NCBI RefSeq assembly: GCF_029960785.1
Contig: NZ_JASBQE010000022.1
Coordinates: forward strand, 62,001-126,000
Direction of reading: 5' to 3'
Length of the DNA stretch: 64,000 nucleotides
Source of the DNA: Polyangium sp. 15x6
GTDB taxonomy: Bacteria > Myxococcota_A > Polyangia > Polyangiales > Polyangiaceae
Shown piece after piece: positions 21,187 through 64,000 of this stretch. Each line of letters begins with the position of its first letter. Positions within the stretch are counted from its first letter, which is position 1. A program made the translations under genes and the position numbers. Below the pieces are notes generated by a model. That model searched no databases, was not told where the DNA came from, and saw only the letters and a list, made by a program, of their open reading frames with translations.

Positions 21187-21369
21187 GGGGCCGGCGTAGC
21201 CGATGGCCCGGCTCGATGCCAGGCAAAACACACGCGCCCACCGCGCGCGCCCCGGGCGTCCGCCGCGGCGCTCGGGGTGCGGGTGGACGGGCCGCCCCAA
21301 TCGTGATCTGCTCGATCGCGGGCGCGCGCCGTGTTCTCCGCGCACGGTCCTGCCCTTTCAGGAGGAGCG

Positions 21370-22479: not shown

Positions 22480-22491
22480 ACGGGCGTGTGG

Positions 22492-23700
22492 TCAGCGTCC
22501 GAGGCCGGCGAGCGTCGCGGCCGCGATCGTCTTCCAGTCGATCCCCGCGGGCAAGCGGCCCTCGGCGCGCTCGGGCCTGCCGCCGCCGCGCCCGCCCGCC
22601 GCGGTCGCCGCGCGCTTCAGGAAGGCGCCGCAGTCGAAGTCGCTCGAGGGGCCGCGCGCCGCGAGCACGATCGTGCCTCCGTCGGCCTCGCCCGCGAGCA
22701 GCGCGACGAGATCCCCCTCGGCCGTGATGCGCCCGGCCACCGCGCGCACGAGGTCGAGCGAAGCATCCTCGATGACGCCGATCACCGCCCGCTCGCCACG
22801 CGCCCGCGTTTCCTTCACGAGCGCCTCGGCGATCGCACCGGCCACGCGTCCCCGCACGCGCCCGAGCGCCTGACGCGCCTCGTCGAGCTCGCGGCGCAGC
22901 TTCTCGATGCCCGCGGGCACGTCCTCCGGGCCGCAGGTGAGCTCGCGGGCGAGCGCGCGCACGACGTCCGCCTCGCGGGAGAGCTTCGTCCGGGCCCGCA
23001 CGCCCGCGGAGAAGGTGACGCGCATCTTGCCCTTGTACCGCTCGAGCCCGTCGATGCGAACGAAGCCGACCTGCGCGGTGTTCGTGCAGTGCGTGCCGCC
23101 GCAGGGCGAGACGTCGAAGTCGCCGATCGCGACGACACGCACGTTCTCGTGCACCTTGGGCTGCCGTCGCAGCGGGAGCGCGCGGAGCTCGTCCTCGGAA
23201 GGGAAAAACGCGCGGATGGGCGCGTCGTCGTCGATGACGGCGTTGACGAGGGCCTCGGCCTCGGCGACGGCGCGCTCGTCGAGGGCGGCGACGTCGAGGT
23301 CGATCGTGCACGCGCTCTCGCCGAGGCGCGAGGAGACGGTCTCGGCGCGGGCCACGTCGGCGAGCGCGCGCGAGAGCATGTGCTGGCCGGTGTGCTGCGC
23401 CATGTGGACGAGGCGGCGCGGCTTGTCGATCGAGCCCGAGACTTCGGCGCCGATCGCGGGTAGTGGGCCTTCGAGCACGTGATGGATGCGTCCCTCGTCG
23501 TCGACCTGCACGTCGACGACGGCGGCTTCGTCGAGGCGGCCGCGATCGGCCATCTGCCCGCCGGACTCGGGGTAAAACGCGGTGCGATCGAGCAGCACGC
23601 TCGGGCGGCCAGCGTGGGTCTCGTGGGCGATGACGACGCCGCGGAACGAGAAGAGCTTCGAGTCGTCGTGGTAGAGCGGCGAAGAGCGAGGTGTGGCCAA
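22492..23700 (-). CDS. Alanyl-tRNA editing protein (AlaX-like, with DHHA1-type tail)
   Basis: About 402 residues from a TTG at 23700 (13 bases after the preceding stop, with GGAG upstream); an ATG at 23745 inside the neighbour gene is an alternative. It matches the editing half of alanyl-tRNA synthetase: FYPESGGQMADRG, then the zinc ligands in HTGQHMLS and CGGTHC. The C-terminal 120 residues resemble the DHHA1 region. There is no synthetase core. Such proteins deacylate Ser-tRNA(Ala) or Gly-tRNA(Ala) in trans. It is the last gene of a three-gene minus-strand run after the kinase and hydrolase genes. Confidence 0.88.
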   Translation of the reverse strand: MATPRSSPLYHDDSKLFSFRGVVIAHETHAGRPSVLLDRTAFYPESGGQMADRGRLDEAAVVDVQVDDEGRIHHVLEGPLPAIGAEVSGSIDKPRRLVHMAQHTGQHMLSRALADVARAETVSSRLGESACTIDLDVAALDERAVAEAEALVNAVIDDDAPIRAFFPSEDELRALPLRRQPKVHENVRVVAIGDFDVSPCGGTHCTNTAQVGFVRIDGLERYKGKMRVTFSAGVRARTKLSREADVVRALARELTCGPEDVPAGIEKLRRELDEARQALGRVRGRVAGAIAEALVKETRARGERAVIGVIEDASLDLVRAVAGRITAEGDLVALLAGEADGGTIVLAARGPSSDFDCGAFLKRAATAAGGRGGGRPERAEGRLPAGIDWKTIAAATLAGLGR

Positions 23701-23713
23701 GGCCGAGGAGCTC

Positions 23714-24748
23714 CTACGGGCGAGACGCGGGCAGGACGTGATCACGCAGGATGTCGGGCAGGAGCCGGAGCTGGCCGCAGTGCGCGTCGCCGTCCGAGCC
23801 CGCGTATCCGCGGAGGAAGAAGTGGTTCTGATCGTGGGCGCGCGAGAGGCCGAAGGGATCCTGCGCGGGCGGCGTGGCCGGGACGTCGGCGCCGATCTCG
23901 CGCAGGAGGAACGTGCCCGTCTCGAGCGTGGAGGCGTAGTCGGGCGTGGGGACGGCCGTGTGCGTGACGAAGAGGAGAGGGCCGCCGTTCGCCGCGGCGC
24001 GCGCGAAGGACGAGAAGGGCGCGAGCTCGGTGGGATCGGGCATCTTGGCGCCGGACGTGTAGCTCGCGTAGAGCGAGTCGAGCAGGATGACGGCGTCGAC
24101 GTCGTCGCGACCTCCCGCGAGGATCCGCGAGATCGCGCCGTAGCCCGCGCTCCACGACGAGAGGACGATGCTGCGCGGGCGCGCGGCAGGGTTTTTCGTG
24201 GCGAGCGCGACCTCGCGGCTGATCGCCGAGAGCATCGCGTCGAACGTGCCTTCGGATTCGAATGTGCTCTTGTAGCCGCTCGACAGCGTGCCCGTGTCGA
24301 GGCCGGCGATCACGAGGCCGAGGCCGAGGGGCGCGAGCTGCTTGCGGATGGGCTCGGTGCCGTGGAAGTGGACGAGCAGATCGAAGCCGCCGTCGGGCGG
24401 GACGGTGAGGCTCGAAGGGACGAGCATGCGGCCGAGCGGGAGCGGTCGCCAGCCGAGGTAGTCGCCGAAGCCGTTGTCCGGGAAATCGCAGCCGCTACGA
24501 GGCGCGGCCTCCGAGACGAGCGCCGCGGGCTTGCCAGGCGCGCCGCTCGGAAGCGGCGACATCGTGAGCGTGCCTTCGGCGCCCTCGGACGTCTCCGTGT
24601 TCTTCGCGGTCGCGCCTTCGTCCTCGCTGCGCGCGGCGGATCCGATCACGACGATGGCGGCGCAGAGGCCGACCACCGCGAGATCGCGGAGCCAGTGGGG
24701 CGTCGTGCCCTTGCTCAGAAGCCGGGATCCGTGACTTTGGGTACCCAC
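23714..24748 (-). CDS. Predicted exported or membrane-anchored alpha/beta-hydrolase-like protein
   Basis: A 344-residue protein with an N-terminal hydrophobic helix (DLAVVGLCAAIVVIGSAAR), then a Ser/Thr/Glu-rich linker and a hydrolase-like domain. LLVHFHG may supply the oxyanion region, SSWSAGYG has the G-x-S-x-G-like nucleophile elbow (S-W-S-A-G), and AHDQNHFF near the end may supply the His. The substrate is unknown. The GTG start at 24748 overlaps the end of the upstream kinase gene by 34 bases, suggesting coupling; a later start is possible. Confidence 0.65.
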   Translation of the reverse strand: MGTQSHGSRLLSKGTTPHWLRDLAVVGLCAAIVVIGSAARSEDEGATAKNTETSEGAEGTLTMSPLPSGAPGKPAALVSEAAPRSGCDFPDNGFGDYLGWRPLPLGRMLVPSSLTVPPDGGFDLLVHFHGTEPIRKQLAPLGLGLVIAGLDTGTLSSGYKSTFESEGTFDAMLSAISREVALATKNPAARPRSIVLSSWSAGYGAISRILAGGRDDVDAVILLDSLYASYTSGAKMPDPTELAPFSSFARAAANGGPLLFVTHTAVPTPDYASTLETGTFLLREIGADVPATPPAQDPFGLSRAHDQNHFFLRGYAGSDGDAHCGQLRLLPDILRDHVLPASRP

Positions 24749-26346
24749 GTCGTGCTCGCCGGTGCCCCGGTGGGCTTTGCGGTCGCCGTGGCTGCGGGCT
24801 TCGTCGCGCCCGTGCCTTTCGTCGTGCCCGCGGGTTTGTCGTCGCGTTTCGTCGTCGCTTGGGGGTCCGCGTCTGCGGACGGGAGATCGTTGATGTCGAG
24901 GACCGTGCCTCCGCCCGTGCTCGCCGAGGACTCTGGGGCCGCGCCGGTCTGCACGGCCACGGGCGTCGCGGCTTGCGTGGGGGCGGGCGGGCTCGGCGGC
25001 GTGGGCGCCACGTTTCCCGCGGCGTTTCCGGCCGCCGCGCGTGGCCCCATCGTGGTGCGCAGGAACATGAACGTGCCCGCGAGCGAGAGCGCGGCCACCG
25101 CGCCGACGGCCATGAAGAGCCCCGCGCGCGTGTTCTTTTGCGGCGGCGTCGACGGCACGAGCGAACCCGACATCGCTCCGCCCGCGTACGATTCGGGCGA
25201 CGGCGGGATGATCGAGGTCGAGGAGTTCCGCGGCATGCTCGTCGGGAAGCTCGTGAGCGCCGAGTTCATGCGCGTGATCGCGATGTCCGAGACCGCCTCG
25301 TGCACGTGCGGCTGCGCGGCGCCCGGCGACATCGCGATGCCCGCGGCGCGCTCGTCGGCGGCGCGCACGGCGTCACGCAGCTCGGCGCGTCGCTTCTGGC
25401 CCCGATCGCCCATCACCGAGCGCGTGAACGCGCCGATGTCGTCATCGACGACCGATGCGCCGGACAAGGCGAGGACACGCTCGAGGGCCGCGTCGAGCTC
25501 CAGCATCGTCTGGTAGCGCTCGTTCGGATCCTTCTTCAAGCAGGTGAGCAGCACGCGCTCGAGCTCGACGGGGAAGCTCGGGTTTTTCATGCGCGGCGGG
25601 AGCAGCGGGCGCGAGATGATGTTCTTCATCGTCGCGAGATCGTTCTCGCCGAGGAACGGGTGCAGGCCCGTCGTGAGCCGGTAGAGAACGATGCCCATCG
25701 CGAAGACGTCGGTGCGCCGATCGATCTTCTGCCCGAGGGCCTGCTCGGGCGACATGTACGGCACTTTGCCCTTGAGCTGCCCTGCCGTCGTCTCGCCGCC
25801 CGCGCGGCCGAGGGCTTTCGCGACGCCGAAATCGACGAGCTTCACGATGCCGTCGTACGAGACGAGGATGTTCTGCGGCGAGACGTCGCGGTGCACCAGG
25901 TTGAGGAGCTGATCGCTGTCGTCGCGCAGCTCGTGCGCGGCGTGCAGGCCCGCGCAGGCCTGGCGGACGATGCGGAGCGCGATGCGCTGCGGCACGGGGA
26001 CGTTGCTACGCTTGGCGGTCTTCGTGATGACGCTGAGCGCCTCGCCGTCCACCCACTCCATGACGATGTAGATCGTCTCGTCCTGCTCGCCGACGTCGAG
26101 GATCTCCGCGACGTTCGGGTGATGGATGCGCGCCGCGAGCGAGGCCTCGTCGAGGAACATCTGCTCGAACTGCGGGTCGTCCGAGAGCGACGGGAGCATC
26201 GTCTTGATGGCCACCGTCTTCTGAAACCCACGCGAGCCCTTCTGCCGCGCGGCCCAGACCGTGGCCATGCCTCCCTGTGCGATCGGCAGGAGCAGCTCGT
26301 AGCGGCCGAGCACCATCCCTGGGGAGAGCGTCTCTTGTTGGGTCAT
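24715..26346 (-). CDS. Serine/threonine protein kinase (Pkn type, membrane-anchored)
   Basis: A 543-residue kinase. The N-terminal catalytic domain (about 14-285) has the Gly-rich loop AQGGMATV, VAIK lysine, catalytic loop HRDVSPQN and DFG (VDFGVA), so it should be active. A Ser/Pro-rich linker leads to one membrane helix (LFMAVGAVAALSLAGTFMF) and a low-complexity Ala/Pro/Thr/Lys tail outside the membrane. Kinases of this type are abundant in myxobacteria and control development and metabolism; the target is unknown. The tail gene overlaps the hydrolase gene at 23714-24748. Confidence 0.92.
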   Translation of the reverse strand: MTQQETLSPGMVLGRYELLLPIAQGGMATVWAARQKGSRGFQKTVAIKTMLPSLSDDPQFEQMFLDEASLAARIHHPNVAEILDVGEQDETIYIVMEWVDGEALSVITKTAKRSNVPVPQRIALRIVRQACAGLHAAHELRDDSDQLLNLVHRDVSPQNILVSYDGIVKLVDFGVAKALGRAGGETTAGQLKGKVPYMSPEQALGQKIDRRTDVFAMGIVLYRLTTGLHPFLGENDLATMKNIISRPLLPPRMKNPSFPVELERVLLTCLKKDPNERYQTMLELDAALERVLALSGASVVDDDIGAFTRSVMGDRGQKRRAELRDAVRAADERAAGIAMSPGAAQPHVHEAVSDIAITRMNSALTSFPTSMPRNSSTSIIPPSPESYAGGAMSGSLVPSTPPQKNTRAGLFMAVGAVAALSLAGTFMFLRTTMGPRAAAGNAAGNVAPTPPSPPAPTQAATPVAVQTGAAPESSASTGGGTVLDINDLPSADADPQATTKRDDKPAGTTKGTGATKPAATATAKPTGAPASTTWVPKVTDPGF

Positions 26347-52883: not shown

Positions 52884-54788
52884 TCACAGGTTGATCTGCA
52901 TCCCGAACTCCACCACGCGCCCCGGCGGCAGCCCGAAGTACATGGTCGCGGGCCGCGCGTTCCGGGAAATGAAGGCGAAGAGGCCTTTTCGCCATCGCAT
53001 CATCTTCGACCGGCCCGTGGGCAGGAGCGTCTCGCGGCCGAGGTAATAACTCGTGCGTTTCAGGTCGATGACGAGCCCGTGCGCCTTGCAGGCGAGCAGC
53101 ACGCTCGGCACGTGGGGCGTCTGCATGAAGCCGTAACGCGCCCGCACCCGATAAAAACCGTTCCCTTTGTCGATGATGCTGATGCGCTCCTCGGGCGGGA
53201 TCTCGGGGACGCGCTCGTTCGTCACCGAGAGCAAGACGACCTGCTCGTGCAGGACCTGGTTGTGCTTGAAATGGTGGAGCAGGACGGGCGGCGTCCCGTG
53301 CGGGTTCGAGGCCATGAAGACGGCGGTCCCGTGCACGCGGAACGGCTTGATCCGGCCCACGTCGTCCAGGAATTGATCGAGCGGCAGGAGATCGGCCTTG
53401 AAGGCCTCGCCGAGGATGCGCCGGCCTGTCTTCCAGGTCGTCATCACCGTGAAGATGCCGAGGGCCATGACGACGGGGAACCAGCCGCCATGGAGGAACT
53501 TGGCCGCATTTGCTGCGAAAAACGCGATGTCGATGGCCAGGAAGACCAGGACGGGCGGCAGGGCTTTCCAGAGCGGCCAGCTCCAGCGCTGCCGCACCAC
53601 GAAGAAATACACGATCGTGGTGATGGCCATCGTGCCGGTGACCGCGATTCCGTAGGCCGCCGCGAGCGCGCTCGAGGTGCGGAACGTGAGGACCAGGGCC
53701 ACGCAGAGGACGAGCAGGGCGCGGTTGATCTCCGGGATGTAGATCTGCCCCTCGGTGTGCTTCGAGGTGTGGACGATGCTGACGCGCGGAAAATACCCGA
53801 GCTGCACGGCCTGCTGGGTGAGCGAGTACGCCCCGGAGATGAGCGCCTGCGAGGCGACGATCGTGGCCGCCGTGGCGATCGCGACGGTCGGCAAGAGGGC
53901 CCAGGACGGGACGAGCTCATAAAAAGGATTCGTGGCGGCGCCGGGCTTCGCGAGCAGGAGCGCCCCCTGGCCGAAATAATTGAGCAGCAGCGCGGGCCAG
54001 ACCACGAAATACCACGCGGCGCGGATCGGGCCGCGTCCGAAATGGCCCATGTCCGCATAAAGCGCCTCGGCGCCCGTGATGCAGAGGACCACGGAGCCGA
54101 GCACCATGAATCCGTGACTGCCGTGCAGGACGAAGAACTGCACCGCGTACCGGGGATCCACGGCGGCGAGGACCGACGGGTTCGCCGCGACGTATCTACC
54201 GCCGAGCAGGGCGATCGTGATGAACCAGACGAGCGTGATGGGTCCGAAGACCTTGCCGATTCCCCCGGTGCCGTGTTTCTGCGCCAGAAACAGGGCGACC
54301 AGAATGGCGACCGTGAGCGGCACGACGAGCGGGCGGAGCTTGTGGGTCGCGACTTCGAGGCCCTCCATGGCCGAGAGGACCGAGATCGCGGGGGTGATGA
54401 CGCCGTCCCCATAAAGCAGGGCCGCGCCGAAGAGCACGAGGAGGACGAGCGGCCCGGTGGGATTGCCTTTGCGCGGCGGGACCAGGGCGAGCAGCGCCAT
54501 GATGCCGCCGGAGCCTTGGTTGTCCGCTTTCATGATGAACGTGAGATACTTGATCGTCACGACCATCAGGAGGGTCCAGAAAACCAGCGAAAGGACCCCG
54601 AGGACGTTCTGCGGCGTGGGCTCGACCCGGTGCGGCGCGGACGGGCTGAAGCACTCTTTGATGGCGTAAAGCGGGCTCGTACCGATATCACCGAAGACGA
54701 CGCCGAGCGCGCCGAGGACCAGAGCCGCGCGGGGGGCATGGGCCACGTGCGCGCCGGGCTGAGCAGCCCTCGAGAGTTCGTCTGTCAT
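52884..54788 (-). CDS. kup: Low-affinity potassium transporter Kup
   Basis: A 634-residue membrane protein with about 12 helices. The N-terminus has LGALGVVFGDIGTSPLYA, the signature of the KUP/HAK/KT family; KADNQGSGGIMALLAL and GDGVITPAISVLSAMEGL are further conserved segments, and the C-terminal cytoplasmic part ends VVEFGMQINL. It takes up K+ with protons. It lies 58 bases upstream of gmhA in the same direction, and is divergent from the histidine kinase gene at 55000. Confidence 0.96.
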   Translation of the reverse strand: MTDELSRAAQPGAHVAHAPRAALVLGALGVVFGDIGTSPLYAIKECFSPSAPHRVEPTPQNVLGVLSLVFWTLLMVVTIKYLTFIMKADNQGSGGIMALLALVPPRKGNPTGPLVLLVLFGAALLYGDGVITPAISVLSAMEGLEVATHKLRPLVVPLTVAILVALFLAQKHGTGGIGKVFGPITLVWFITIALLGGRYVAANPSVLAAVDPRYAVQFFVLHGSHGFMVLGSVVLCITGAEALYADMGHFGRGPIRAAWYFVVWPALLLNYFGQGALLLAKPGAATNPFYELVPSWALLPTVAIATAATIVASQALISGAYSLTQQAVQLGYFPRVSIVHTSKHTEGQIYIPEINRALLVLCVALVLTFRTSSALAAAYGIAVTGTMAITTIVYFFVVRQRWSWPLWKALPPVLVFLAIDIAFFAANAAKFLHGGWFPVVMALGIFTVMTTWKTGRRILGEAFKADLLPLDQFLDDVGRIKPFRVHGTAVFMASNPHGTPPVLLHHFKHNQVLHEQVVLLSVTNERVPEIPPEERISIIDKGNGFYRVRARYGFMQTPHVPSVLLACKAHGLVIDLKRTSYYLGRETLLPTGRSKMMRWRKGLFAFISRNARPATMYFGLPPGRVVEFGMQINL

Positions 54789-54999
54789 CTTGGCCAGTAG
54801 GTAAGGCCAACCGAGCGGAGAGGCGAGCGAGCGATGGGCGGAAACGACGCGGGCGTATGCCCGTCACGGATTGGCTGTGTCCTCGACGGGCCGGTCGTTA
54901 TCGCTGGACCATGCGGCAGCGCGCCCCGACGCCCGCTCCCGCCTCCGCTCCCGCTGCACCAAATACCTCGAATGCGGCCCCGTGTGGCCAGAGGGAACG

Positions 55000-57423
55000 A
55001 TGGCGGACGAAGCACAGCTCGATCGGTCCCCCGATGGGCCTCCGCGGCTCGGGGCCTTTCTCCGATCGAGCGGCGAGCGGATCCTCCGTGAATGGGTCGA
55101 CCGCGCCCGCGCCTTGCCGGACGCGCAGACATTGCCACACGGCGTCTTGCGGGATCACATGCCGCACATCCTCGAAGCGCTCGCCTGCGCCCTCGAGCCG
55201 GGCGAGCACGCGGGTTGCGCCAAGAAAAAACGCGCCCCGGACATCCACGCCCTCGCGCGCCTCGAAGTGGGGTTCGATTTGCGGGAGGTGATGGCCGAGT
55301 ATGCCATGCTCCGCCGCTGCGTCCTCGAGCTCTGGGCCGAGGAGATCGGGGATCTCGCGCCCATTCGCGACGTTCTGGCCTTCGATCGGGCCATCGACGA
55401 GGCGGCCCTTGCGGCCGTCGCGAAATACACCGCCGCGCGCGAGCGGACCCTGCGCGCGCTCGACGCCATGTCCAATGCGGCGCTGAGCAGCCAGGGCATC
55501 CAGAACTTCCTCCATAGCTTTTTCGTCGCTTTGCGCGAAACCTCGCCGATCGTCGATTCCGCGGCGATTTACGTGGTCGAGGGCGAAGACCTCGTCGTCC
55601 GCGCGGCGTTGGGCCCTGCGCAGGAGGCGTCGCTGGGGACGCGGGTCTCTCGCGGCCAATGCCTGGCGGGACGCGCCGTGCTCGCGGCCGCGCCGATCGA
55701 CAGCGTCGATACCCGCGTCGATTCTCGCGTGAGCGCGGCGATCGACAAGGGAAAAGTCCGCTCGGCGTACGCGGTCCCGCTCGAGATCGGGGGCCGCGTC
55801 GCGGCCGTGATCGTGATCGGCGCCGCGACGGCGCGGGCTCTCTCCGACGAGGATCGGCTCATCGTGCGCGCGCTCGCGGCGCGCGCGGCTGCGATCCTGG
55901 CGCTCAAGCAGAGCCACGACGAGACCCGCGCCGCCCTCGCCGTGCTCTCGACGTTCATGGAATCCTCGCCCCTCGGCCTCGCCTTTCTCGATTGCGATCT
56001 GCGCGTCGTGCGGGTCAACACGGCGATGGCCGAGATCCAACGGAGGCGAATCGAGGAGTATCCGGGGCAGCCTTTCCGCGAGTTCGTGCCCCCGCCGATC
56101 GCCCCGGAGACCGAAAAGATCCTGAGGCAGGTGCTCGCGACGGGCAAGCCCCTCCTCGGGCGAGAGGTCTTCGTGGAATGGCCGCCCGGCAGCAGCCAGC
56201 GCGCTGGATTCAGCAGTTATTTTCCGGTCCGCGGCCCCGACGACACGATCCTCGGCCTCGGCATCGTCGTGCAGGACATCACCGACAAGAAGGCCGCCGA
56301 ACAGGCGCTCCGCCAGAGCCAGGCCGCGCTCCTGGAGAGCGAGCAGCGGCTCCGGATCGTCGTCGACAGCTTGCCGTACCTCATCAACTTCGTCGGCGCG
56401 GACGAGCGGTATCGGCTGAACAACAAGGCCTACGAGGTCTGGTTCGGCGTGCCGCCGGCGGAGCTCCGGGGAAAACGTGTCGTCGAGGTGATCGGCGAAG
56501 AGAATTACCGATGGGTCAAGCCGCTCATCGATCGCGCGCTCCGCGGCGAGACGGTCGAGCGCGAATTACCTTTCGTGTTCCGAGGCGGGCGCCGAGGATT
56601 CGTTCATCTCGTGTTCGTCCCGCAGCTCTCGGCCGATGGGCGGGTCCTCGGCTACGTATCGCTCGCCACGGACATCTCGGAGCGAAAGCGGCGCGAATCG
56701 GAGGATCGGAGCCGGCTGGAGTTCGAGCAGCAGCTCATCGGGATCGTATCGCACGATCTCCGCAATCCGCTCACCGCGATCACGCTCGCGGCCACGGTGC
56801 TCCTGCGCCGGGAAGACCTCGACGCGCGCGCCACGAAGACGGCGGCGCGGATCCTCGCCTCGGCGGAGCGCGCCGTTCGATTGATCCACGATCTGCTCGA
56901 TTTCACGGCCGCGCGCCTCGGCCGAGGTATCCCGATCGCGCCCCGCGAGGCCGATTTTCATGCGGTCGTGGCGGGTGTGCTCGACGAGGTGCATGTCGCC
57001 TTCCCAGAGCGAGCGTTTCGCGCGGAGCACGTGGGCGACGGTCGAGGGGTTTTCGATACGGACAGGGTCGCGCAGGTGGTCACGAACATCACGAGCAATG
57101 CCGTGCAATACGGAACGGCCGGGACGCCGGTGACGGTGCGGACCGAGGGCACGGCGACGGAGCTCGCGCTTTCCGTGCACAACCGCGGTCCTGCGATTCC
57201 CGACGCGATCCGGCCGAATCTATTCGCGCCGATGCAACGTGGCGACGTGCCGGGAGATCCGCGGAGCCGGAGCGTGGGCCTCGGGCTTTACATCGTGAAA
57301 GCGATCGTCGAGGCCCACGGCGGCCGGATCGAGGTGCGCTCGACGGAGGAAGAGGGAACGACGTTCGTCGTGTGGATCCCGAGGCAAGCGAAGGTCACGA
57401 AGGAGCCGGGTCTCCCCGGGTAA
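55000..57423 (+). CDS. Cytoplasmic sensor histidine kinase (N-terminal helical, GAF, two PAS, HisKA, HATPase)
   Basis: An 807-residue kinase from the ATG at 55000 (AGGGAACG upstream); the open frame begins at 54871, but that part does not look coding. An N-terminal all-helical sensor (about 15-160, e.g. EVMAEYAMLRRCVLELW) resembles the RsbRD-type domain; GAF covers about 170-315; two PAS follow (325-445, 455-575); HisKA has His585 in SHDLRNPL, and HATPase the N box NITSNAVQYG and VGLGLYIVKAI. No membrane segment and no receiver. A nearby ECF sigma factor could be linked but this is unproven. Confidence 0.93.
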   Translation: MADEAQLDRSPDGPPRLGAFLRSSGERILREWVDRARALPDAQTLPHGVLRDHMPHILEALACALEPGEHAGCAKKKRAPDIHALARLEVGFDLREVMAEYAMLRRCVLELWAEEIGDLAPIRDVLAFDRAIDEAALAAVAKYTAARERTLRALDAMSNAALSSQGIQNFLHSFFVALRETSPIVDSAAIYVVEGEDLVVRAALGPAQEASLGTRVSRGQCLAGRAVLAAAPIDSVDTRVDSRVSAAIDKGKVRSAYAVPLEIGGRVAAVIVIGAATARALSDEDRLIVRALAARAAAILALKQSHDETRAALAVLSTFMESSPLGLAFLDCDLRVVRVNTAMAEIQRRRIEEYPGQPFREFVPPPIAPETEKILRQVLATGKPLLGREVFVEWPPGSSQRAGFSSYFPVRGPDDTILGLGIVVQDITDKKAAEQALRQSQAALLESEQRLRIVVDSLPYLINFVGADERYRLNNKAYEVWFGVPPAELRGKRVVEVIGEENYRWVKPLIDRALRGETVERELPFVFRGGRRGFVHLVFVPQLSADGRVLGYVSLATDISERKRRESEDRSRLEFEQQLIGIVSHDLRNPLTAITLAATVLLRREDLDARATKTAARILASAERAVRLIHDLLDFTAARLGRGIPIAPREADFHAVVAGVLDEVHVAFPERAFRAEHVGDGRGVFDTDRVAQVVTNITSNAVQYGTAGTPVTVRTEGTATELALSVHNRGPAIPDAIRPNLFAPMQRGDVPGDPRSRSVGLGLYIVKAIVEAHGGRIEVRSTEEEGTTFVVWIPRQAKVTKEPGLPG

Positions 57424-57464
57424 AACGTGATCGGGCGGGGGAGGGGTCTCATCGGGGACCGTGG

Positions 57465-57580
57465 AGCCGGGGCGCTGCCCCGGGCCCCGCGGGGGCTGTT
57501 CGCCCCTCGACCCGAACCAGGGCAAGCCCTGGACCTCAGGTGGAAAAACTGCGCTGCGCGCAGTTTTTCCAGCAGGCCGG
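57465..57580. repeat. Composite four-hairpin element, copy 4
   Basis: Modules: CCGGGGC/GCCCCGG (57467-57483), a G/C-rich imperfect hairpin (57488-57509), CCAGGGC/GCCCTGG (57517-57532) and TGGAAAAACTGCGC/GCGCAGTTTTTCCA (57541-57571, 3-nt loop). The next bases, GCAGGCCGGTGGCAAGACC, match those after copy 3a. This copy lies between genes in tandem (kinase, then sigma factor). Confidence 0.75.
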
Positions 57581-57749
57581 TGGCAAGACCGTGGAGGAGC
57601 GTTTCAAGCTGAACCGTCAGCGCCGCCGGTTGGGTTGGCAGGGGGTGAGGGAATTTCAGCGAGGGCGTGGGTTCTCCCGCGACTCCCGCGACGAACCAAT
57701 CCGCTCTTTTGCCATTGCCTCCGACCTCAATTCATGAGACAAAGCAAGC
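57581..57749. other. Intergenic remainder before the sigma-factor gene
   Basis: These bases, between the hairpin element and the 14-bp palindrome, start with sequence shared with the 3a-3b linker (GGCAAGACC, then AGCGTTTCAAGCTGAACCG). No gene, further repeat or promoter was recognised. The sigma-factor promoter probably lies at the right end. Confidence 0.4.
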
Positions 57750-57784
57750 GACGCCAGCCGGTGCTGGTAACACCGGCTGGCGTC
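57750..57784. promoter_or_regulatory. Perfect 14-bp inverted repeat upstream of the ECF sigma gene
   Basis: GACGCCAGCCGGTG (57750-57763) is followed by a 7-base loop (CTGGTAA) and its exact complement CACCGGCTGGCGTC (57771-57784), ending 37 bases before the sigma-factor start. No T-run follows, so it is more likely an operator or 5'-UTR hairpin than a terminator; a regulator is unknown. Confidence 0.55.
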
Positions 57785-57821
57785 TGACCCACGACACCGC
57801 GATACCCGGAGCCATGAGCTA

Positions 57822-58361
57822 ATGGTCACGATACCCGTCCATCATCCGCCGGCAAACTTTTCTGCGTCGCACGCCTTGCTCGGCCGCCTTTACCTCGAAC
57901 ACCGCGCTTTCCTGCGCCGTCTCCTTCTCGTCCAGGCGGTCCCTCTCCGCGACGTGGAGGATGTCCTGCAGGAGGTTTTCATCACGGTATGGCGTCGCCT
58001 CTCGTGCCTGGTCACGCCGGAGCAGGCGCGCCCGTGGTTGGTATTGATCGGGCTCAACCATGCGCGCAATCATCGCCGGCTCGTGCGATGCGAGCGTGAG
58101 GTCCTCGCCGGCTGCGCGGAAGACCTTCCCGAGCAGGAAGACCGGACCACGCCGGAGACATATCTGCATGCGATGTACGGCATGTTTCGGCTCAAGCGAT
58201 TCCTGGAGAAGATCGGCCCGCGCCTCCGGGCCGCGGTGATACCGTTCCTGGAGGGGAAATCGATCACGGAGATTGCAGCGTCGCTCGGCATCAAAACGAA
58301 GGCCGTCGATGGTCGCCTGCGTCTCGCGCGAAAGCGTTTGGAGATGCTCGCGCTCGCGTGA
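57822..58361 (+). CDS. ECF-type RNA polymerase sigma factor
   Basis: A 179-residue sigma-70 family protein with only regions 2 and 4. Region 2 includes RDVEDVLQEVFITVWRRL (the D-x-x-Q-E-V-F motif binding core polymerase) and region 4 has FLEGKSITEIAASLGIKTKAVDGRLRLARKRL, a helix-turn-helix for the -35 element. No anti-sigma gene is adjacent; the next gene is a DUF6891 protein 218 bases away. A palindrome precedes the start. The ATG at 57822 gives a plausible N-terminus (MVTIPVHHPPAN). Confidence 0.88.
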   Translation: MVTIPVHHPPANFSASHALLGRLYLEHRAFLRRLLLVQAVPLRDVEDVLQEVFITVWRRLSCLVTPEQARPWLVLIGLNHARNHRRLVRCEREVLAGCAEDLPEQEDRTTPETYLHAMYGMFRLKRFLEKIGPRLRAAVIPFLEGKSITEIAASLGIKTKAVDGRLRLARKRLEMLALA

Positions 58362-58433
58362 CTTCCGTTTGCGCAAGCGCACGCGCCTCCGCCTCCGCCC
58401 CTGCCTCCGCCGCCGCCCCCGCTCCCGCCCCCG

Positions 58434-58530
58434 CGCACCGTGACGCCCGCGTGCACGTTGAAGCCCGACACCTCCGCGGCCCACGGGCCCTTGCCCGCAG
58501 CGCGGAAGCGAGCGTCATCGAGCGCTAGCA
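58434..58530 (-). pseudogene. Possible remnant of an IS91-like transposase
   Basis: A minus-strand stretch of about 30 codons reads GKGPWAAEVSGFNVHAGVTV, resembling the segment of IS91-family (putative transposase, PF04986-type) proteins that precedes the R-L-C-R-Y-x-x-R-P-P motif. It then runs into a Gly/Pro-rich simple sequence and stops, so the gene is truncated at both ends. The match is by eye only; no terminal repeats are visible. Confidence 0.35.
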
Positions 58531-58579
58531 AGATGCCGCTTGTCCCCGACAGCATCAATTCGGTACATTCCGCGGCCTG

Positions 58580-59440
58580 ATGGACACGGCAGCGACGATC
58601 GCCACAGAATATGCTCACCAGCTCGACGCGGCCGCCCTCCGCCGCGCGCGCATCTTGGTGAGAGGCACCGCGGAGCGCTTCAAGACGCTGGACGGCAGCA
58701 CCAACTACATCCTTGCGTGCGCGAGCGAGGCCGCGCCGGAAGTCGTGGCGGCGTCGGCCACGAACACGTTTCGCGCCTACTGCAGGGCGCTCTGGAGCGA
58801 AGACTTTGCGCTCGAACAGCGGTGGGCCGACCGCACCACCAACGACGCCATCGACGAGGCATTCACGAGGCTCGATCGCAGCGGTATCGTGGCGATGCAG
58901 AACGTCGGCGGCACCCAGGCGATGGGATGGGCCGAGGTCAACGCGCGTATTGCCTCGCTCGGGTCGAAGAAGAAGAAGGTGCTCGGCGCGGTCTTCTACC
59001 ACTCCCAGGATGTCGAGCGCGGCGTCGAAGGCGAGGGCCTCCTTCTGACGTTCGGCGCGCTGGACGGGACGGACGAGAGCGCCTCCGCCGTCGCGAACGC
59101 CGTCCTCGACGCCCTGCGCGCCGAGGGGGTGGCCTGCGAGTGGAGCGGTGAAATCGACGCGCGCATTCGCATCGCGCCGTTCGCGTGGAAGAAGCGGAGA
59201 TGGACGAAGCCTCCGGAGAGGCAGGCTCCCGTGCCGTGGCGGACATTCGTGCATCCCGACGGGCGCGTGTGGTCGGTCGCGGGATTGAACAACCGCGTCT
59301 GCGTCCGGATGAGAGACATAGACGGCGACATCCTCGAGCGTCAGACGGCGTCGAAGGACATCGCGACCGACGTGGCTGCGCTGACCAACGAGCAGCTGGC
59401 GGAGGGCTTCACGCCAAGTGGGTCGTCGATGAGGATTTGA
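58580..59440 (+). CDS. DUF6891-type protein of unknown function
   Basis: A 286-residue protein. The first part is helical (ATEYAHQLDAAALRRARILV). The middle resembles the DUF6891 family: TNDAIDEAFTRLDRSGIVAMQNV, MGWAEVNARI, AVFYHSQDVERGVEGEGLLL and ALRAEGVACEWSGEIDARIRI. The C-terminal 70 residues (RTFVHPDGRVWSVAGLNNRV) look like a small WGR-like beta domain. No catalytic function known. It follows the sigma factor in the same direction but may be independent. Confidence 0.65.
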   Translation: MDTAATIATEYAHQLDAAALRRARILVRGTAERFKTLDGSTNYILACASEAAPEVVAASATNTFRAYCRALWSEDFALEQRWADRTTNDAIDEAFTRLDRSGIVAMQNVGGTQAMGWAEVNARIASLGSKKKKVLGAVFYHSQDVERGVEGEGLLLTFGALDGTDESASAVANAVLDALRAEGVACEWSGEIDARIRIAPFAWKKRRWTKPPERQAPVPWRTFVHPDGRVWSVAGLNNRVCVRMRDIDGDILERQTASKDIATDVAALTNEQLAEGFTPSGSSMRI

Positions 59441-59526
59441 CGACGCGCGCCGGAGCCAGAAGTGGCGGGAGAGCATGCCGCTCTTGCGCAGCACCGCTTC
59501 CGCCTCCGCCTCTCCGTTGGCGTCGC

Positions 59527-59985
59527 TCAGCCCCCGTCGGGCGATGAGCAGACACAGGCGCTGGCGGCGGGAAAGAGCACCCAGCAGGCCCATTCGCCGC
59601 TTTCACAGCTACACAGCCATTGATCGAGCGGCGACGACAGACCTCCGGGGGCCGGCGGCATCCCGCAACAATCGCGCGTGTGTCCCGCTACGCAGACCTC
59701 GTCACCGATGCACGCGCCGCACGGAAGTGCCTCCCATGTCTGCACCCCGCATGAGGGCGCTGACTGTGCTCCCGACGTGTAGGCGTCGAACTTCGCCGGC
59801 GCCGGTTCCCAGGCATGGCTGCAAGTACCGGCCTCGCCGCCTTGGGCGCCGGTGCCCCCATCGGCTCCTCCGCCCCCGTCTGCGGCACCCCCTATCGACG
59901 AACCCGAGCAGCTCGACGCTATGAGCAGCAGCCAAGGGCACAGGATGACGAGCGTTCGTTGGTGAGTCCTGGGCTGAAACTGCAT
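59527..59985 (-). CDS. Cys-rich lipoprotein, unknown function
   Basis: A 152-residue protein from an ATG at 59985. The signal peptide ends in a lipobox (LIASSC), followed by a Gly-rich linker (GGAADGGGGADGGTGAQGG), as in other surface lipoproteins of myxobacteria. The mature domain has ten or more Cys (CSHAW, CGVQTW, CGACIGDEVC, DCCGM, CSCESGEWAC), suggesting several disulphides. No family recognised. The tail of DUF6891 at 59440 is convergent with it. Confidence 0.6.
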   Translation of the reverse strand: MQFQPRTHQRTLVILCPWLLLIASSCSGSSIGGAADGGGGADGGTGAQGGEAGTCSHAWEPAPAKFDAYTSGAQSAPSCGVQTWEALPCGACIGDEVCVAGHTRDCCGMPPAPGGLSSPLDQWLCSCESGEWACWVLFPAASACVCSSPDGG

Positions 59986-60060
59986 GGAACACCTCGCACA
60001 GCGAGAGCGGAGGCGGAAGCGGCAAGCGCCTCCGCCCGCTCCTTCTTCAACCTGGCCTTT

Positions 60061-60528
60061 TCAGGTTGCAGACGCCTTCTTCCGCGGCCCGATGGCCATG
60101 AAGTCCACCACCGTCTGCAGCTCGGCGGCCAGGTCGGGCATTCGTTCCCCCATGGCCGACAGCACGCCGTAATAGGCGAGGAACGCCTCCCACGCCTCCG
60201 ACCCTGCTTGCATCCCGGTATCCTCGGCGAGCTGCAGGGCCACGCGAAGCTCCTCCTCGATCGGCTGGAGTTGCTTCGTGAGGCCGGCATCGTTCTCCAG
60301 GCCTGCGAGCGGGATGTTCTTCAGCGCGACGTTGTACTTCTTCGCCAGATCGATCACCCGCTGAATGTGCGGCTCCGCGCCCCTGCGCTGGCGCAGCGTG
60401 CGCCTGCGCTCGTCCGCGGTGAGCGTGATCCCGTGCGCCCTGAGCTTCTCGACGATCGCCTTCAGTTGCGCGAGCAACTGGATGTGGTCCTCGGGCGTCA
60501 AGAGCGTGTCACCAACTTTGTTCTCCAT
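60061..60528 (-). CDS. Small helical protein, unknown function
   Basis: A 155-residue protein from the ATG at 60528 (MENKVGDTLLTPEDHIQLLAQ). It is almost entirely helical with several amphipathic segments (LLAQLKAIVEKLRAHGI, LQPIEEELRVALQLAEDTG) and a basic C-terminus (GPRKKASAT). No membrane segment or signal peptide. The gene is divergent from the CHAT locus; the 22-bp iteron array lies between them. A link to that locus is possible but unproven. Confidence 0.6.
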   Translation of the reverse strand: MENKVGDTLLTPEDHIQLLAQLKAIVEKLRAHGITLTADERRRTLRQRRGAEPHIQRVIDLAKKYNVALKNIPLAGLENDAGLTKQLQPIEEELRVALQLAEDTGMQAGSEAWEAFLAYYGVLSAMGERMPDLAAELQTVVDFMAIGPRKKASAT

Positions 60529-60612
60529 ACGTGAACGTTCCTCGCTTTCGGGGGTAGGTTACCCAACCTTGCTTGCCGTTGCGAGTTCGTTGTGATGGGC
60601 ATCGCTCTCCCC

Positions 60613-60949
60613 GGGGTGGCGAAGGATCGGCCAGCGCGGGGCGAAAGCTTCGCCAGCGCGGGGCGAAAGCTTCGCCAGCGCGGGGCGAAAGCTTCGCCAG
60701 CGCGGGGCGAAAGCTTCGCCAGCGCGGGGCGAAAGCTTCGCCATCGGGTGGCGAAAGATCGGCCAGCGGATGGCGAAAGATCGGCCAGCGGGTGGCGAAA
60801 CATTCGCCGCCGTATGGTGAAACATTCGTCACCGTGTGGCGAAAGATCCGCCACCACCTGGCGAAGGATCTGCCATCGGGTGGCGAAAGATCGGCCAGCG
60901 GATGGCGAAAGATCGGCCATCGGGTGGCGAAGGATCCGCCAACGCATGG
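60613..60949. repeat. 22-bp iteron array (array B), 15 units
   Basis: Fifteen contiguous units of exactly 22 bp: the GCGA core starts at 60619, 60641, 60663, 60685, 60707, 60729, 60751, 60773, 60795, 60817 (as GTGA), 60839, 60861, 60883, 60905 and 60927. Typical cores are GGCGAAAGCTTCGCC and GGCGAAAGATCGGCC; many contain GGCGAA and TTCGCC or TCGGCC as inverted half-sites about 3 bases apart. The first five to six units are nearly identical; later ones vary. There are no spacers, so it is not a CRISPR. The period is not a multiple of three, so frames through it are not coding. It fills the divergent gap upstream of the CHAT gene. Confidence 0.9.
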
Positions 60950-60980
60950 TCGAACCTCTCCTCTCGACAGGGGGACTCTC

Positions 60981-61169
60981 ATGCGACACGCCTTTCTCGT
61001 TTTCGGGCTCATCGCTTTCGGGTCGCTCGGGGTCGTGGTACGGTCTCCGCGAGATGGAGGTCGTCGAACGATGGACACCCGAGCCGCCGACCGCGGAGTG
61101 ATGCTCGCATTCTCGTCCGCGGGCGCGTATCCGTACTCCAACGTCCTCGCTGCGTGCAATGTGGCTTGA
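60981..61169 (+). CDS. Possible small membrane protein upstream of the CHAT gene (doubtful)
   Basis: An ATG at 60981 with AGGGGGA a few bases upstream opens a 62-codon frame (MRHAFLVFGLIAFGSLGVVV). Residues 3-20 form one hydrophobic helix; the rest is unremarkable. Its stop overlaps the CHAT start by 11 bases, so if translated it would be coupled to it. It may be a chance frame; nothing else supports it. Confidence 0.3.
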   Translation: MRHAFLVFGLIAFGSLGVVVRSPRDGGRRTMDTRAADRGVMLAFSSAGAYPYSNVLAACNVA

Positions 61170-61545
61170 GCTCGAGCTTGCCCCGGATGACCAGGGGATC
61201 CGCCTGTCTGCGCGTGGGAGCCGCGGAGAGCGCCCTTCGCCACACAGGCTCTCGCCCGAGAAGGGCGCCTTCACATTGCAGACCTTCACGACCAAAGTAG
61301 GGCGCGCCTCCCGCGCTGCGAAAGCGCTCGATCCCGATGTCGTGAGCTATGCCCAGGCGCTCCACCAGGAGCTCTTCCAGGGCGAGGTGCGCGACACGCT
61401 CACGCGCCTCGGCGAAGCCGCCAAAGACGGCCGCGTGCTCGTGCGGCTCTTCATGAGCGATCGCGAACTTCAGGCCACCCCATGGAGGCCCTGTGCAGGC
61501 CGGGCACCACCGAAGGCTTCCTCGGCACCGATGCAAAGCTCTTGA
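61159..61545 (+). CDS. N-terminal part of a CHAT-domain protein (frame 1 of a frameshifted gene)
   Basis: This frame starts at an ATG at 61159 (MWLELELAPDDQ) and encodes the usual N-terminal region of CHAT proteins: LDPDVVSYAQALHQELFQGEV and VRLFMSDRELQATPW. It should continue W-E-A-L-C, but at 61480-61487 the reading slips: CCA TGG AGG in this frame against ATG GAG GCC in the next. One missing G at that point would explain it. The last 20 or so codons (RPCAGRAPPKASS) are therefore out of frame and not homologous. The rest of the protein is in the entry at 61482. Confidence 0.7.
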   Translation: MWLELELAPDDQGIRLSARGSRGERPSPHRLSPEKGAFTLQTFTTKVGRASRAAKALDPDVVSYAQALHQELFQGEVRDTLTRLGEAAKDGRVLVRLFMSDRELQATPWRPCAGRAPPKASSAPMQSS

Positions 61546-63125
61546 TCGCGCGGGGCGTGATGTCACAGGATCCCTGGGAGCCGCGCGCGGTCCGCGGCGC
61601 CGTGCGCGTACTCGCCATTGCCCCTGGAACCGATGAGCGCGCCCTCGCGGTGTTATCCGAGGCGCTCGCCCCTTCCGTCGAGGCCGGCGAGGTGGAGTGG
61701 CTGGATCCGATCGCTGGAGACACGATCAGCGCCCAGGTCCTCTTCAACCGCCTGCGGAGCGGAAAGAGCCCCCATGTCGTGCACTACCTCGGGCATGGCG
61801 GGGTGGATCTGCAGGGGCGACCGGTGCTGCGCCTGGCCGACGACCATGACGGCGAGGAGCGGTGGATCACGGTCGAGGCGCTCGCGCGCGAGCTCCAGTC
61901 GAGCTTTGCCGAGGATCTGCGCCTCATCGTCCTGGAGTCGTGCGAGGGCGGAAAGCCCGGCGTGTTCGGTAGCGCCGCGGAGATCCTGGTCAAAGCGGGC
62001 GCCGACGCTGTCATCGCGCATCTGTGGCCTGTGAGGGCCGACGTGGCGCGGCTTTGTTCCGTCGAGGTTTACCGGACCCTGACCGGCTCGGATCGCGCCT
62101 CTGGCGATATCGGCGCCAGCGTTGCGGCGGCGCGGCGCACGCTTCTGACAGAGAGCGCAGCGGCCTTCTCACCCGTTCTTTACCTTCGCGCCTCCGACCC
62201 TGTGATCTTCAATTTCAAGAACCGCAGGGTCGCGCGGCCCGGGAACGAGTCCAGATCCAAGAGGCTCGCGCCAGCCCTCCAGCAGATCATCGAAAAGCCG
62301 TTCACGCTCGTCCTCGGAGACAACGAGGGAGATCGCGCCGTACTCAAGAACGAAGTCGTGCAGTTTCTGGTGGCGCAGGGCGAGACGAGCGACCCGGGCC
62401 TACCGCTCAGCGCCCTCATGCAGCAATGCGCGATGCGTTATGGCATCGATGTTTGCCACTCGATTTTCCAGACCTCCATCCTGGAGCAAATGCAGGGTTC
62501 TGCGCCGCCCTTCTTCGAGGCCATGGGCAGGCTCCTGCCCCCCGGCGTCCACTTCACTCTTCTGTGGCAGCCGTACCTCGAGCGCGCGATCGCGGCGGCG
62601 CAGCCTCAAAGGACCATTTATGCCATCCAGCCGTCGTTGCGCAGCTCCGGCAAGCCACGCGTGATCAAGCGCCCGGCAGGCGCGGCTGCGTGGAAGATGG
62701 AGGCCGCCGTGCCCGGTCGGCTCGATCTCGACAATGAAATCGTCGTGCTCCGCATCTACGGCGGCTACTCGGCCGAGGCGAGGCCCATCTTCTCGCAGCC
62801 GCTGCTGACCGAGGACGACCATCTCTTGAGCTTGCGGAGCCTCAGCTGGATCGAGGAATTGCTCTCGCAGCCGCGGACGCGGCCGAGCCTCTTCGCCGGG
62901 CTCCTTCTGCGGAAGTGGCGCCATCGCATGCTCCTTCGCTGGCTCCATGACGAGCGCCCTCCCCCGAAGGACAGCCTGGCCATCGTACCGTCGAGCGCAA
63001 GCCTGACCGAGCCCGCGATATGGGACAGCGGCGGCTGGCTGGAAGGGGCAGGGCGGGTCGCCGTGATCGCGGAGGAGCTGGAGCAGCTCTCCGCGCTCCT
63101 GCTCGACGCGGCGCAAGGCGCCTGA
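61482..63125 (+). CDS. CHAT-domain (caspase-like) protein with possible SIR2-like C-terminal region, frame 2
   Basis: A 547-residue frame following the slip at 61485. The CHAT protease fold has His105 (HYLGHGGVDL) and Cys154 (LESCEGG), the catalytic dyad, then ADAVIAHLWPV and GASVAAARRTL. From about residue 270 comes a region beginning FTLVLGDNEGD with VLRIYGGYSAEARPI and LLTEDDHLLSL; this suggests a SIR2-like (NAD-handling) domain, by weak likeness only. It ends with GWLEGAGR. CHAT proteins are proteases in conflict and cell-death systems. The gene may be a pseudogene, a sequencing error, or translated by frameshift or re-initiation at 61482. Confidence 0.75.
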   Translation: MEALCRPGTTEGFLGTDAKLLIARGVMSQDPWEPRAVRGAVRVLAIAPGTDERALAVLSEALAPSVEAGEVEWLDPIAGDTISAQVLFNRLRSGKSPHVVHYLGHGGVDLQGRPVLRLADDHDGEERWITVEALARELQSSFAEDLRLIVLESCEGGKPGVFGSAAEILVKAGADAVIAHLWPVRADVARLCSVEVYRTLTGSDRASGDIGASVAAARRTLLTESAAAFSPVLYLRASDPVIFNFKNRRVARPGNESRSKRLAPALQQIIEKPFTLVLGDNEGDRAVLKNEVVQFLVAQGETSDPGLPLSALMQQCAMRYGIDVCHSIFQTSILEQMQGSAPPFFEAMGRLLPPGVHFTLLWQPYLERAIAAAQPQRTIYAIQPSLRSSGKPRVIKRPAGAAAWKMEAAVPGRLDLDNEIVVLRIYGGYSAEARPIFSQPLLTEDDHLLSLRSLSWIEELLSQPRTRPSLFAGLLLRKWRHRMLLRWLHDERPPPKDSLAIVPSSASLTEPAIWDSGGWLEGAGRVAVIAEELEQLSALLLDAAQGA

Positions 63126-63131
63126 GGCGGG

Positions 63132-63623
63132 TCAGAAGGAAAAGCGGGTCGAGAGGCCTGCCGTATCGTGCGACGCCACCGGGACGCCGTTCGTCGAGTT
63201 CTGCTGGCCCTTGCATTCCGGTTGGGGACTTTGAACGTCTCCCGCGCCGCAATCACACGCCTCACCGGCCGCGATGTCGACGACTCCGTTTCCGCACGTC
63301 TCGTTGGACTTGCAGTCGGCGCTGCACCCGTCGCCCCCCACGTCGTTCCCGTCATCGCAGACTTCATCGGCCCACGTTTCCGACAGGCCCTTGCCGCAGG
63401 TCGGGTTGCTATACCGGCACATATTCTGAACACATTCATAACCGAGCGAGCAGTACCCATCGCCGCACGGTATTTCCAGCCCAACGCACGCTCCGCCGAG
63501 CGCGATCAGCGCGAGCACGAAGAGCAACACGGCCGCGCCAATCATCACGCCGCCTGGTCGGCGACCCCCTGTCCTGCTTGCCGCGAGACCCATGGCCATT
63601 CTCCGTGTGGATAGCGTCTTCAT
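63132..63623 (-). CDS. Membrane-anchored cysteine-rich-repeat protein
   Basis: The protein has 163 residues from an ATG at 63623 (63599 is an alternative). One N-terminal membrane helix ([21 protein letters not shown]) anchors it or acts as a signal. The extracellular part has [17 protein letters not shown], then [39 protein letters not shown], matching the Myxococcus cysteine-rich repeat (DUF4215-type) found in many myxobacterial surface proteins. Function unknown. It is convergent with the CHAT gene. Confidence 0.75.
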
Positions 63624-63645
63624 CCGATGGTCATGCATACGAATT

Positions 63646-63933
63646 TCAGCGTAGGATCCGCCATGCCCAAGAAGCTGCAAGCGCCATCGCCGACGCCGTC
63701 GGATACAGCCGGAGCGACGCGAGCATCTCGGCGAGCGCCGGCCCCCACGCCTCCTGCTTGAACAGCGCCGCGCGGCCTCGCTGGAGCCGCTCCCTGGCGA
63801 GCTCCTTGTTCGCGTCCGGCGTCGGCGCGGACGCGGGCGCATCCTGCGCCAGGGCGGGACCTCCGCACAGCAGCACGCCGTCGTAGGGGCCACCATTGCC
63901 GAGATGCAGATCACTGATGAACAGGGTGCGCAT
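63646..63933 (-). pseudogene. Chimeric gene remnant: phosphoesterase start joined to a TPR-type protein piece
   Basis: A 95-codon frame from the ATG at 63933. It begins MRTLFISDLHLGNGGPYD, the N-terminus of a calcineurin-like metallophosphoesterase (D-x-H motif), but then switches to LLCGGPALAQDAPASAP, which looks like the end of a signal peptide, followed by ERLQRGRAALFKQEAWGPALA, typical of the first repeat of secreted TPR-type proteins, and stops soon after. The joint near 63880 suggests a deletion between two genes. It is probably non-functional. Confidence 0.5.
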
Positions 63934-64000
63934 GTTCCTTCTCCTCGGCCGGCGACGCCCAATCACGAAGCGCAGGAGAGAGTCGATGTCGCCCCGACGT

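What the first reader, a model, noticed from the sequence alone, without database searches (positions are those of the whole stretch)
61159..63125. CHAT-domain gene interrupted by an apparent one-base loss in the conserved P-W-E-A-L-C motif
Seen: the first frame reads VRLFMSDRELQATPW and the second frame begins MEALCRPGTTEGFLG; the joined sequence gives LQATPWEALC, a motif typical of CHAT proteins. At 61480-61487 (CCATGGAG) one G is missing between TGG and GAG. Three readings: true inactivation, sequencing error, or programmed frameshift. The remaining 547 codons are intact with both catalytic residues, which argues against old decay.
Basis: seen in the sequence. Interest (0 to 1): 0.6.

Follow-up and report, generated by a model that had tools for sequence, protein, structure and literature searches.

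The report
Recently broken caspase-like (CHAT) gene
A myxobacterium carries a copy of a caspase-like protease gene that is split by a one-base frame break not seen in the relatives examined, so it is most likely a recently inactivated gene, which is ordinary decay in a gene family with fast turnover.

Summary
Bases 61159-61485 and 61485-63122 encode the two halves of one CHAT protein of about 660 residues; the frames differ by one base exactly between W and E of PWEALC. In 28 of 30 other family places this point is read in one frame; the other two are fragments that do not reach it. Intact relatives (Sorangium and others) are CHAT proteases with a weakly SIR2-like C-terminus, usually followed by an nSTAND1 gene (19 of 24 intact places); the window copy has no such neighbour.

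Against the nearest relative the gene has five in-phase indels and this one out-of-phase, and both catalytic residues are kept, so the break is recent. Sequencing error is unlikely but not excluded: no true frame break was found in 118,138 comparable coding bases of this assembly (split rows checked). No slippery heptamer and no conserved shift, so programmed frameshifting is improbable. Best reading: recent inactivation, about 0.78. The second copy in this genome is also disrupted, and truncated copies exist in finished Sorangium chromosomes. Ordinary.

The parts
61159..61545 (+). ORF1: N-terminal 109 residues of the CHAT protein, then 19 residues outside the family to the stop
61482..63125 (+). 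ORF2: rest of the CHAT protein (family residue 110 to the end), with a possible ATG of its own at 61482
61483..61485 (+). Frame break, between W109 (last family residue in ORF1's frame) and E110 (first in ORF2's frame)
61692..62159 (+). Part of the CHAT domain found by Pfam in ORF2 (profile positions 122-271 of 289); three intact relatives match from position 3, 30 and 3
61794..61796 (+). Catalytic His codon (GHGG)
   Evidence: aligned with the GHG of the solved CHAT protein 8tl0
61941..61943 (+). Catalytic Cys codon (ESCEGG)
   Evidence: aligned with the Cys of 8tl0
62727..63023 (+). Weak SIR2-like (PF13289) region
   Evidence: E 0.016, below the cut-off; 6 of 20 alignment rows at E <= 0.1, best 2.1e-4

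Best explanation
The locus is a lineage-specific copy of a myxobacterial CHAT-protease gene (CHAT plus a SIR2-like C-terminal region) that recently suffered a real one-base frame-breaking mutation inside the CHAT domain. Translation from the normal start ends after 128 codons; the catalytic part can only be made, if at all, from an internal start, and would lack about 109 residues, some of them part of the CHAT domain. In intact relatives the protein is probably the effector of an NTP-dependent conflict (defence or cell-death) system switched by an nSTAND1 partner; here no such partner is near. Shown: the frame break, its absence in relatives, the catalytic residues, the missing partner. Inferred: mutation rather than sequencing error, loss of activity, and the effector role.
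For: 28 of 30 other family places read the PW|E point in one frame; the other two are fragments that do not include it. Only one out-of-phase indel against L029 at 68% DNA identity. Pairwise dN/dS of ORF2 with L033 is about 0.33, near the 0.31 between intact L029 and L033, so most of its history was constrained. Assembly control: no true frame break in 118,138 coding bases of this genome covered by relatives' ORFs, which hold 35 G/C runs of six or more bases (split rows settled). Family turnover: 6 of the 24 places, window included, are broken or truncated, three of them on the So ce26 chromosome and one on that of So0157-2. The other copy in this genome has +2 and -2 indels with a TGA between, and its partner lacks the NTPase core. 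None of 5 same-genus genomes has the gene, and synteny with them ends at 54.8-57.4 kb.
Against: No reads were available, so a sequencing or assembly error cannot be excluded. The control covers conserved genes on contigs 144, 133, 225 and 77, not contig 99; the two small indels of the contig 99 copy lie at or beside G runs, where sequencers err. Five of 18 intact relatives, the nearest (L029) among them, also show no nSTAND1 gene downstream, so its absence here is no sign of decay. The dN/dS estimate has little power for a short recent period.
Confidence: 0.78

Rival explanations
1. Sequencing or assembly error: the living gene is intact and the missing base is an artefact of this draft of 275 contigs.
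For: One base only; every other indel against L029 in phase; catalytic residues and 547 codons intact. The second copy in the assembly also shows small indels at or beside G runs, and the related assembly G005 does have frame breaks in conserved genes.
Against: No true frame break in 118,138 covered coding bases of this genome, which hold 35 G/C runs of six or more and 15,293 runs of two or three. The 95% bound (3 per 118,138 bases) gives about 5% at most for a gene of 1,967 bases.
Confidence: 0.13
2. Functional split: ORF2 is made on its own from ATG 61482, or both pieces are made and associate, giving a working truncated or two-chain protease.
For: ORF2 has its own ATG, both catalytic residues, no stop, and overall constraint. 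The frames overlap, which would allow coupling.
Against: No relative examined is arranged so (28 of 28 places that cover the point are one frame). No Shine-Dalgarno-like word of four bases or more in the 80 bases before 61482, only AGG. The break cuts the CHAT domain: Pfam matches three intact relatives from profile positions 3, 30 and 3, but ORF2 only from 122.
Confidence: 0.06
3. Programmed -1 frameshifting joins the two frames.
For: The frames overlap over 61191-61545 and the shift needed is -1.
Against: No X XXY YYZ heptamer in the overlap; no relative examined has the shift; the GGAGG-like bases lie at the junction and after it, not before it.
Confidence: 0.03

Closest known systems
CHAT domain proteases (Pfam PF12770), e.g. 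the solved CHAT protein 8tl0 and PADLOC's SAVED_CHAT model
   Same: The His-Cys region aligns with 8tl0 (E 0.00035); PADLOC SAVED_CHAT matches ORF2 at E 3.5e-9 over residues 89-238
   Different: No SAVED domain reported by the Pfam scans; the C-terminal region is weakly SIR2-like; here the domain is cut by a frame break
Intact Sorangium cellulosum copies (L022 So0157-2, L023 So ce26)
   Same: Same protein of 663 residues end to end; ORF2 63% and ORF1 56% identical to L022
   Different: One reading frame; followed by an nSTAND1 gene, with WD40 repeats in L022; none at the window locus
NTP-dependent conflict systems with STAND NTPases (eLife 2020 e52696; PNAS 2024 e2316469121)
   Same: A protease effector next to an nSTAND1 NTPase with a repeat sensor, as in the intact relatives
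   Different: The passages seen (not the whole papers) do not describe a CHAT plus SIR2-like protein paired with nSTAND1-WD40; the word CHAT does not occur in the main text of the first

Membership tests
CHAT protease (PF12770) | Profile match above the curated cut-off | tested here: met
   ORF2 50.1 bits against cut-off 24
CHAT protease (PF12770) | Catalytic His and Cys | tested here: met
   H at 61794-61796, C at 61941-61943; columns nearly invariant in A1 and aligned with 8tl0. Their catalytic role is recalled, not tested
CHAT protease (PF12770) | Whole domain in one open frame | tested here: not met
   Frame break inside the domain
SIR2-like (PF13289) | Profile match above the cut-off | tested here: inconclusive
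   Window 15.7 bits against 24.5; 6 of 20 rows at E <= 0.1
CHAT + nSTAND1-WD40 conflict operon | nSTAND1 gene directly downstream | tested here: not met
   None between window 54001 and the contig end; present in 13 of 18 intact copies and 6 of 6
CHAT + nSTAND1-WD40 conflict operon | Phage defence or cell-death activity | not testable with these tools
   No assay
Programmed -1 frameshift gene | Slippery heptamer X XXY YYZ in the overlap | tested here: not met
   None in the overlap 61191-61545
Programmed -1 frameshift gene | Shift conserved in relatives | tested here: not met
   0 of 28 places that cover the point
Pseudogene | Frame disrupted where relatives are intact | tested here: met
Pseudogene | Disruption present in the living genome | not testable with these tools
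   No reads; error rate only bounded

The most novel reading that the evidence does not exclude
The split is functional: the cell makes the catalytic half alone from ATG 61482, or joins the halves by an unconventional frameshift, so that a CHAT effector without an nSTAND1 switch is kept at a low or differently controlled dose.
Probability: 0.06. Interest if true: 0.5.

Novelty: new member of a known kind. Interest (0 to 1): 0.13.

Why it matters
On its own little: a recent pseudogene of an accessory effector. It does show that a CHAT plus SIR2-like effector, mostly paired with an nSTAND1 gene, is multiplied in Sorangium (at least 12 places in So ce26, fragments included) and turns over quickly in related myxobacteria, which makes these loci candidates for tests of defence or cell-death function.

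Tried and rejected
Structure prediction of the intact relative L022 with only four alignment rows gave mean pLDDT 36.6, so the model was not used and no fold search was run. Rfam search of 54500-64000 gave nothing at gathering scores. Promoter and terminator scans found no more than shuffles (0 against 0.3; 2 against 1.9). Plasmid records gave only two distant cyanobacterial matches.

Assembly control, rows against the reading. Relatives' ORFs on this genome gave nine distinct split rows: seven, one more (G004, window 21216-22476), and one (G002). Two rows of G005 were genes that are whole here and broken in G005: the ORFs at own contig 144:25699-27270 and 20067-25067 run in one frame in G002 and G001. 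The other rows lie at gene starts and were taken as spurious 5' extensions of the relatives' ORFs (GMP synthase and potassium transporter genes, named for the window copies; a prolyl-tRNA synthetase-like gene, name recalled; the kinase-like gene of contig 144; the gene at window 21331; and one beside a neighbouring gene's end). In the other direction, own ORFs on relatives gave four rows and two: three from the kinase-like and large ORFs above, one (contig 133) where G005 is damaged by a long run of glycine codons and this genome is whole, and two from one own ORF whose first 118 residues are leader sequence in all three relatives aligned. In one search the G005 frames printed were of the wrong stretch, because ORF coordinates were on the reverse strand; one search repeated the comparison for one of the two cases, and for the potassium transporter the judgement rests on this genome's own frames.

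Old decay was rejected because of in-phase indels and constraint. Signs of relaxation: faster amino-acid change than L029 (chi-square 5.7 to 15.6 with six outgroups) and an end branch of 0.42 (the place beside L029 has only moderate support, 88/91). The window copy departs at 33 of 239 positions that are otherwise invariant in a set of 12, against 21 of 227 for L036 and 38 of 246 for L038, so it is not exceptional.

Literature: search listings only; passages by term for PMC7159879, PMC8195603, PMC10907252 and PMC10952713. 'CHAT domain' with 'Sorangium' gave 0 papers. These searches cover open-licence papers only, so they do not show that the CHAT-nSTAND1 pairing is undescribed.

Full report
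What is there. The window lies at bases 62001-126000 of contig 144 (150,782 bases) of a 13.4-Mb draft genome of 275 contigs. Relatives with this gene include Sorangium cellulosum So0157-2 and So ce26, of the same family. ORF1 runs from ATG 61159 to the TGA at 61543-61545; its first 109 residues end in ATPW. ORF2 runs from ATG 61482 to 63125 and starts MEALC. The two are halves of one protein: residues 1-109 of intact relatives match ORF1 and residue 110 onward matches ORF2.

Relatives. A search of 108 genomes of the family gave 24 places in 8 genomes at E <= 1e-40, the window's own included (at most 13 candidates were scored per genome, so a lower bound). Of the 23 others, 22 read ...PW|E... 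in one frame; the other, L045, is a fragment that does not reach the point; L046 covers it but has a stop six codons upstream. A class-wide search (317 genomes, 11 with a match at E <= 1e-30; at most four candidates scored per genome) added 7 places, of which 6 read the point in one frame and one (L092) is a fragment that does not cover it. In total 28 of 30, and none of the 28 begins at the equivalent of 61482.

Family anatomy. Intact members are about 650-670 residues: a CHAT domain (19 of 20 rows of alignment A1 match PF12770, the twentieth being the short ORF1 piece) with the His-Cys pair, and a C-terminal region that matches SIR2-like PF13289 weakly (6 of 20 rows at E <= 0.1, best 2.1e-4). 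The His-Cys region aligns with the solved CHAT protein 8tl0 (E 0.00035). A1 held the 18 intact relatives and the two window pieces; five broken or truncated places (L002, L039, L043, L045, L046) were left out. An nSTAND1 gene follows directly or within about 150 bases in 13 of the 18 and in 6 of 6 intact copies of the class-wide set, two of these by weaker matches. Its WD40 repeats were confirmed for L022 only, the one partner scanned over its length. No nSTAND1 match follows L014, L026, L027, L029 and L032 in the DNA held, about 1.5 kb downstream for four of them, nor the window gene as far as the contig end.

The break. Aligned with L029 over the whole gene (68% DNA identity), the window gene has indels of +6, -3, -3, -15 and -6 bases and one single-base difference, at 61484. 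Three intact relatives match the CHAT profile from positions 3, 30 and 3, while ORF2 matches from 122, so the break lies inside the domain. ORF2's pairwise dN and dS with L033 are 0.286 and 0.868, against 0.221 and 0.702 for L029 with L033 (Nei-Gojobori counts by my script). The gene therefore spent most of its separate history under constraint, and the break is recent. Signs of relaxation are mild: faster amino-acid change than L029 and an end branch of 0.42. Third-position G+C is lower (0.835 in ORF2, 0.798 in the N-terminal piece) than in the 11 closest relatives (0.87-0.95), but two more distant intact copies are as low or near it (L031 0.79, L030 0.85).

Error or mutation. I compared this genome with syntenic stretches of G001-G005. 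Relatives' ORFs covered 118,138 bases of its coding DNA on contigs 144, 133, 225 and 77; the split rows that appeared are told one by one in Tried and rejected, and none proved to be a frame break in this genome. The covered DNA holds 35 G/C runs of six or more bases and 15,293 runs of two or three. With no event, the 95% bound for a gene of this length is about 5%. The contig 99 paralogue has +2 and -2 indels at or beside G runs with a TGA between, and its partner gene keeps WD40 repeats but not the NTPase core. Contig 99 was not covered by the control, so those small indels could be errors; a missing NTPase core is not a base-calling error. Truncated copies L043, L045 and L046 lie on the So ce26 chromosome and L039 on that of So0157-2. 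Decay is thus usual in this family.

Programmed frameshift or split. The overlap in which both frames are open, 61191-61545, holds no X XXY YYZ heptamer; no word of four or more Shine-Dalgarno bases precedes ATG 61482 in the 80 bases scanned; no relative examined shares the shift. Neither reading is excluded, but neither has support beyond the overlap itself and the intact second frame.

Setting. Synteny with the five same-genus genomes ends between 54.8 and 57.4 kb. The gene lies in a variable stretch, and none of those five has it: their best matches are other CHAT genes at E 5.5e-10 or weaker. It was gained by this lineage or lost by the others.

Verdict. A correct observation of an ordinary event: a recently broken, lineage-specific CHAT effector gene.

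Noticed in passing
window 60614-60954: Tandem array of about 14 units of 22 bases, many with TGGC...GCCA arms, about 200 bases upstream of the CHAT gene; the 18-base core GGCGAAAGATCNGCCANC occurs 5 times in the genome without mismatch, all in this array.
   Followed up: partly
L025:9735-14839 (own contig 99): Second copy of the family, 73% identical to L036, with +2 and -2 indels and a TGA between; its nSTAND1 core is gone but WD40 repeats remain.
   Followed up: yes
L025:8230-9735 (own contig 99): ORF just upstream of the contig 99 copy, ending at its start codon; no Pfam match at E <= 0.01.
   Followed up: partly
G005:C1 7501503-7509272 and 5444187-5445040: Three conserved ORFs that are whole in the window's genome appear frame-broken or damaged in the near-closed relative G005; two of them are whole in G001 and G002 as well.
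   Followed up: partly
G122 and G123 places (L022, L023 among them): The CHAT plus SIR2-like family is multiplied in Sorangium: at least 12 places in So ce26 (fragments included) and 5 in So0157-2.
   Followed up: partly
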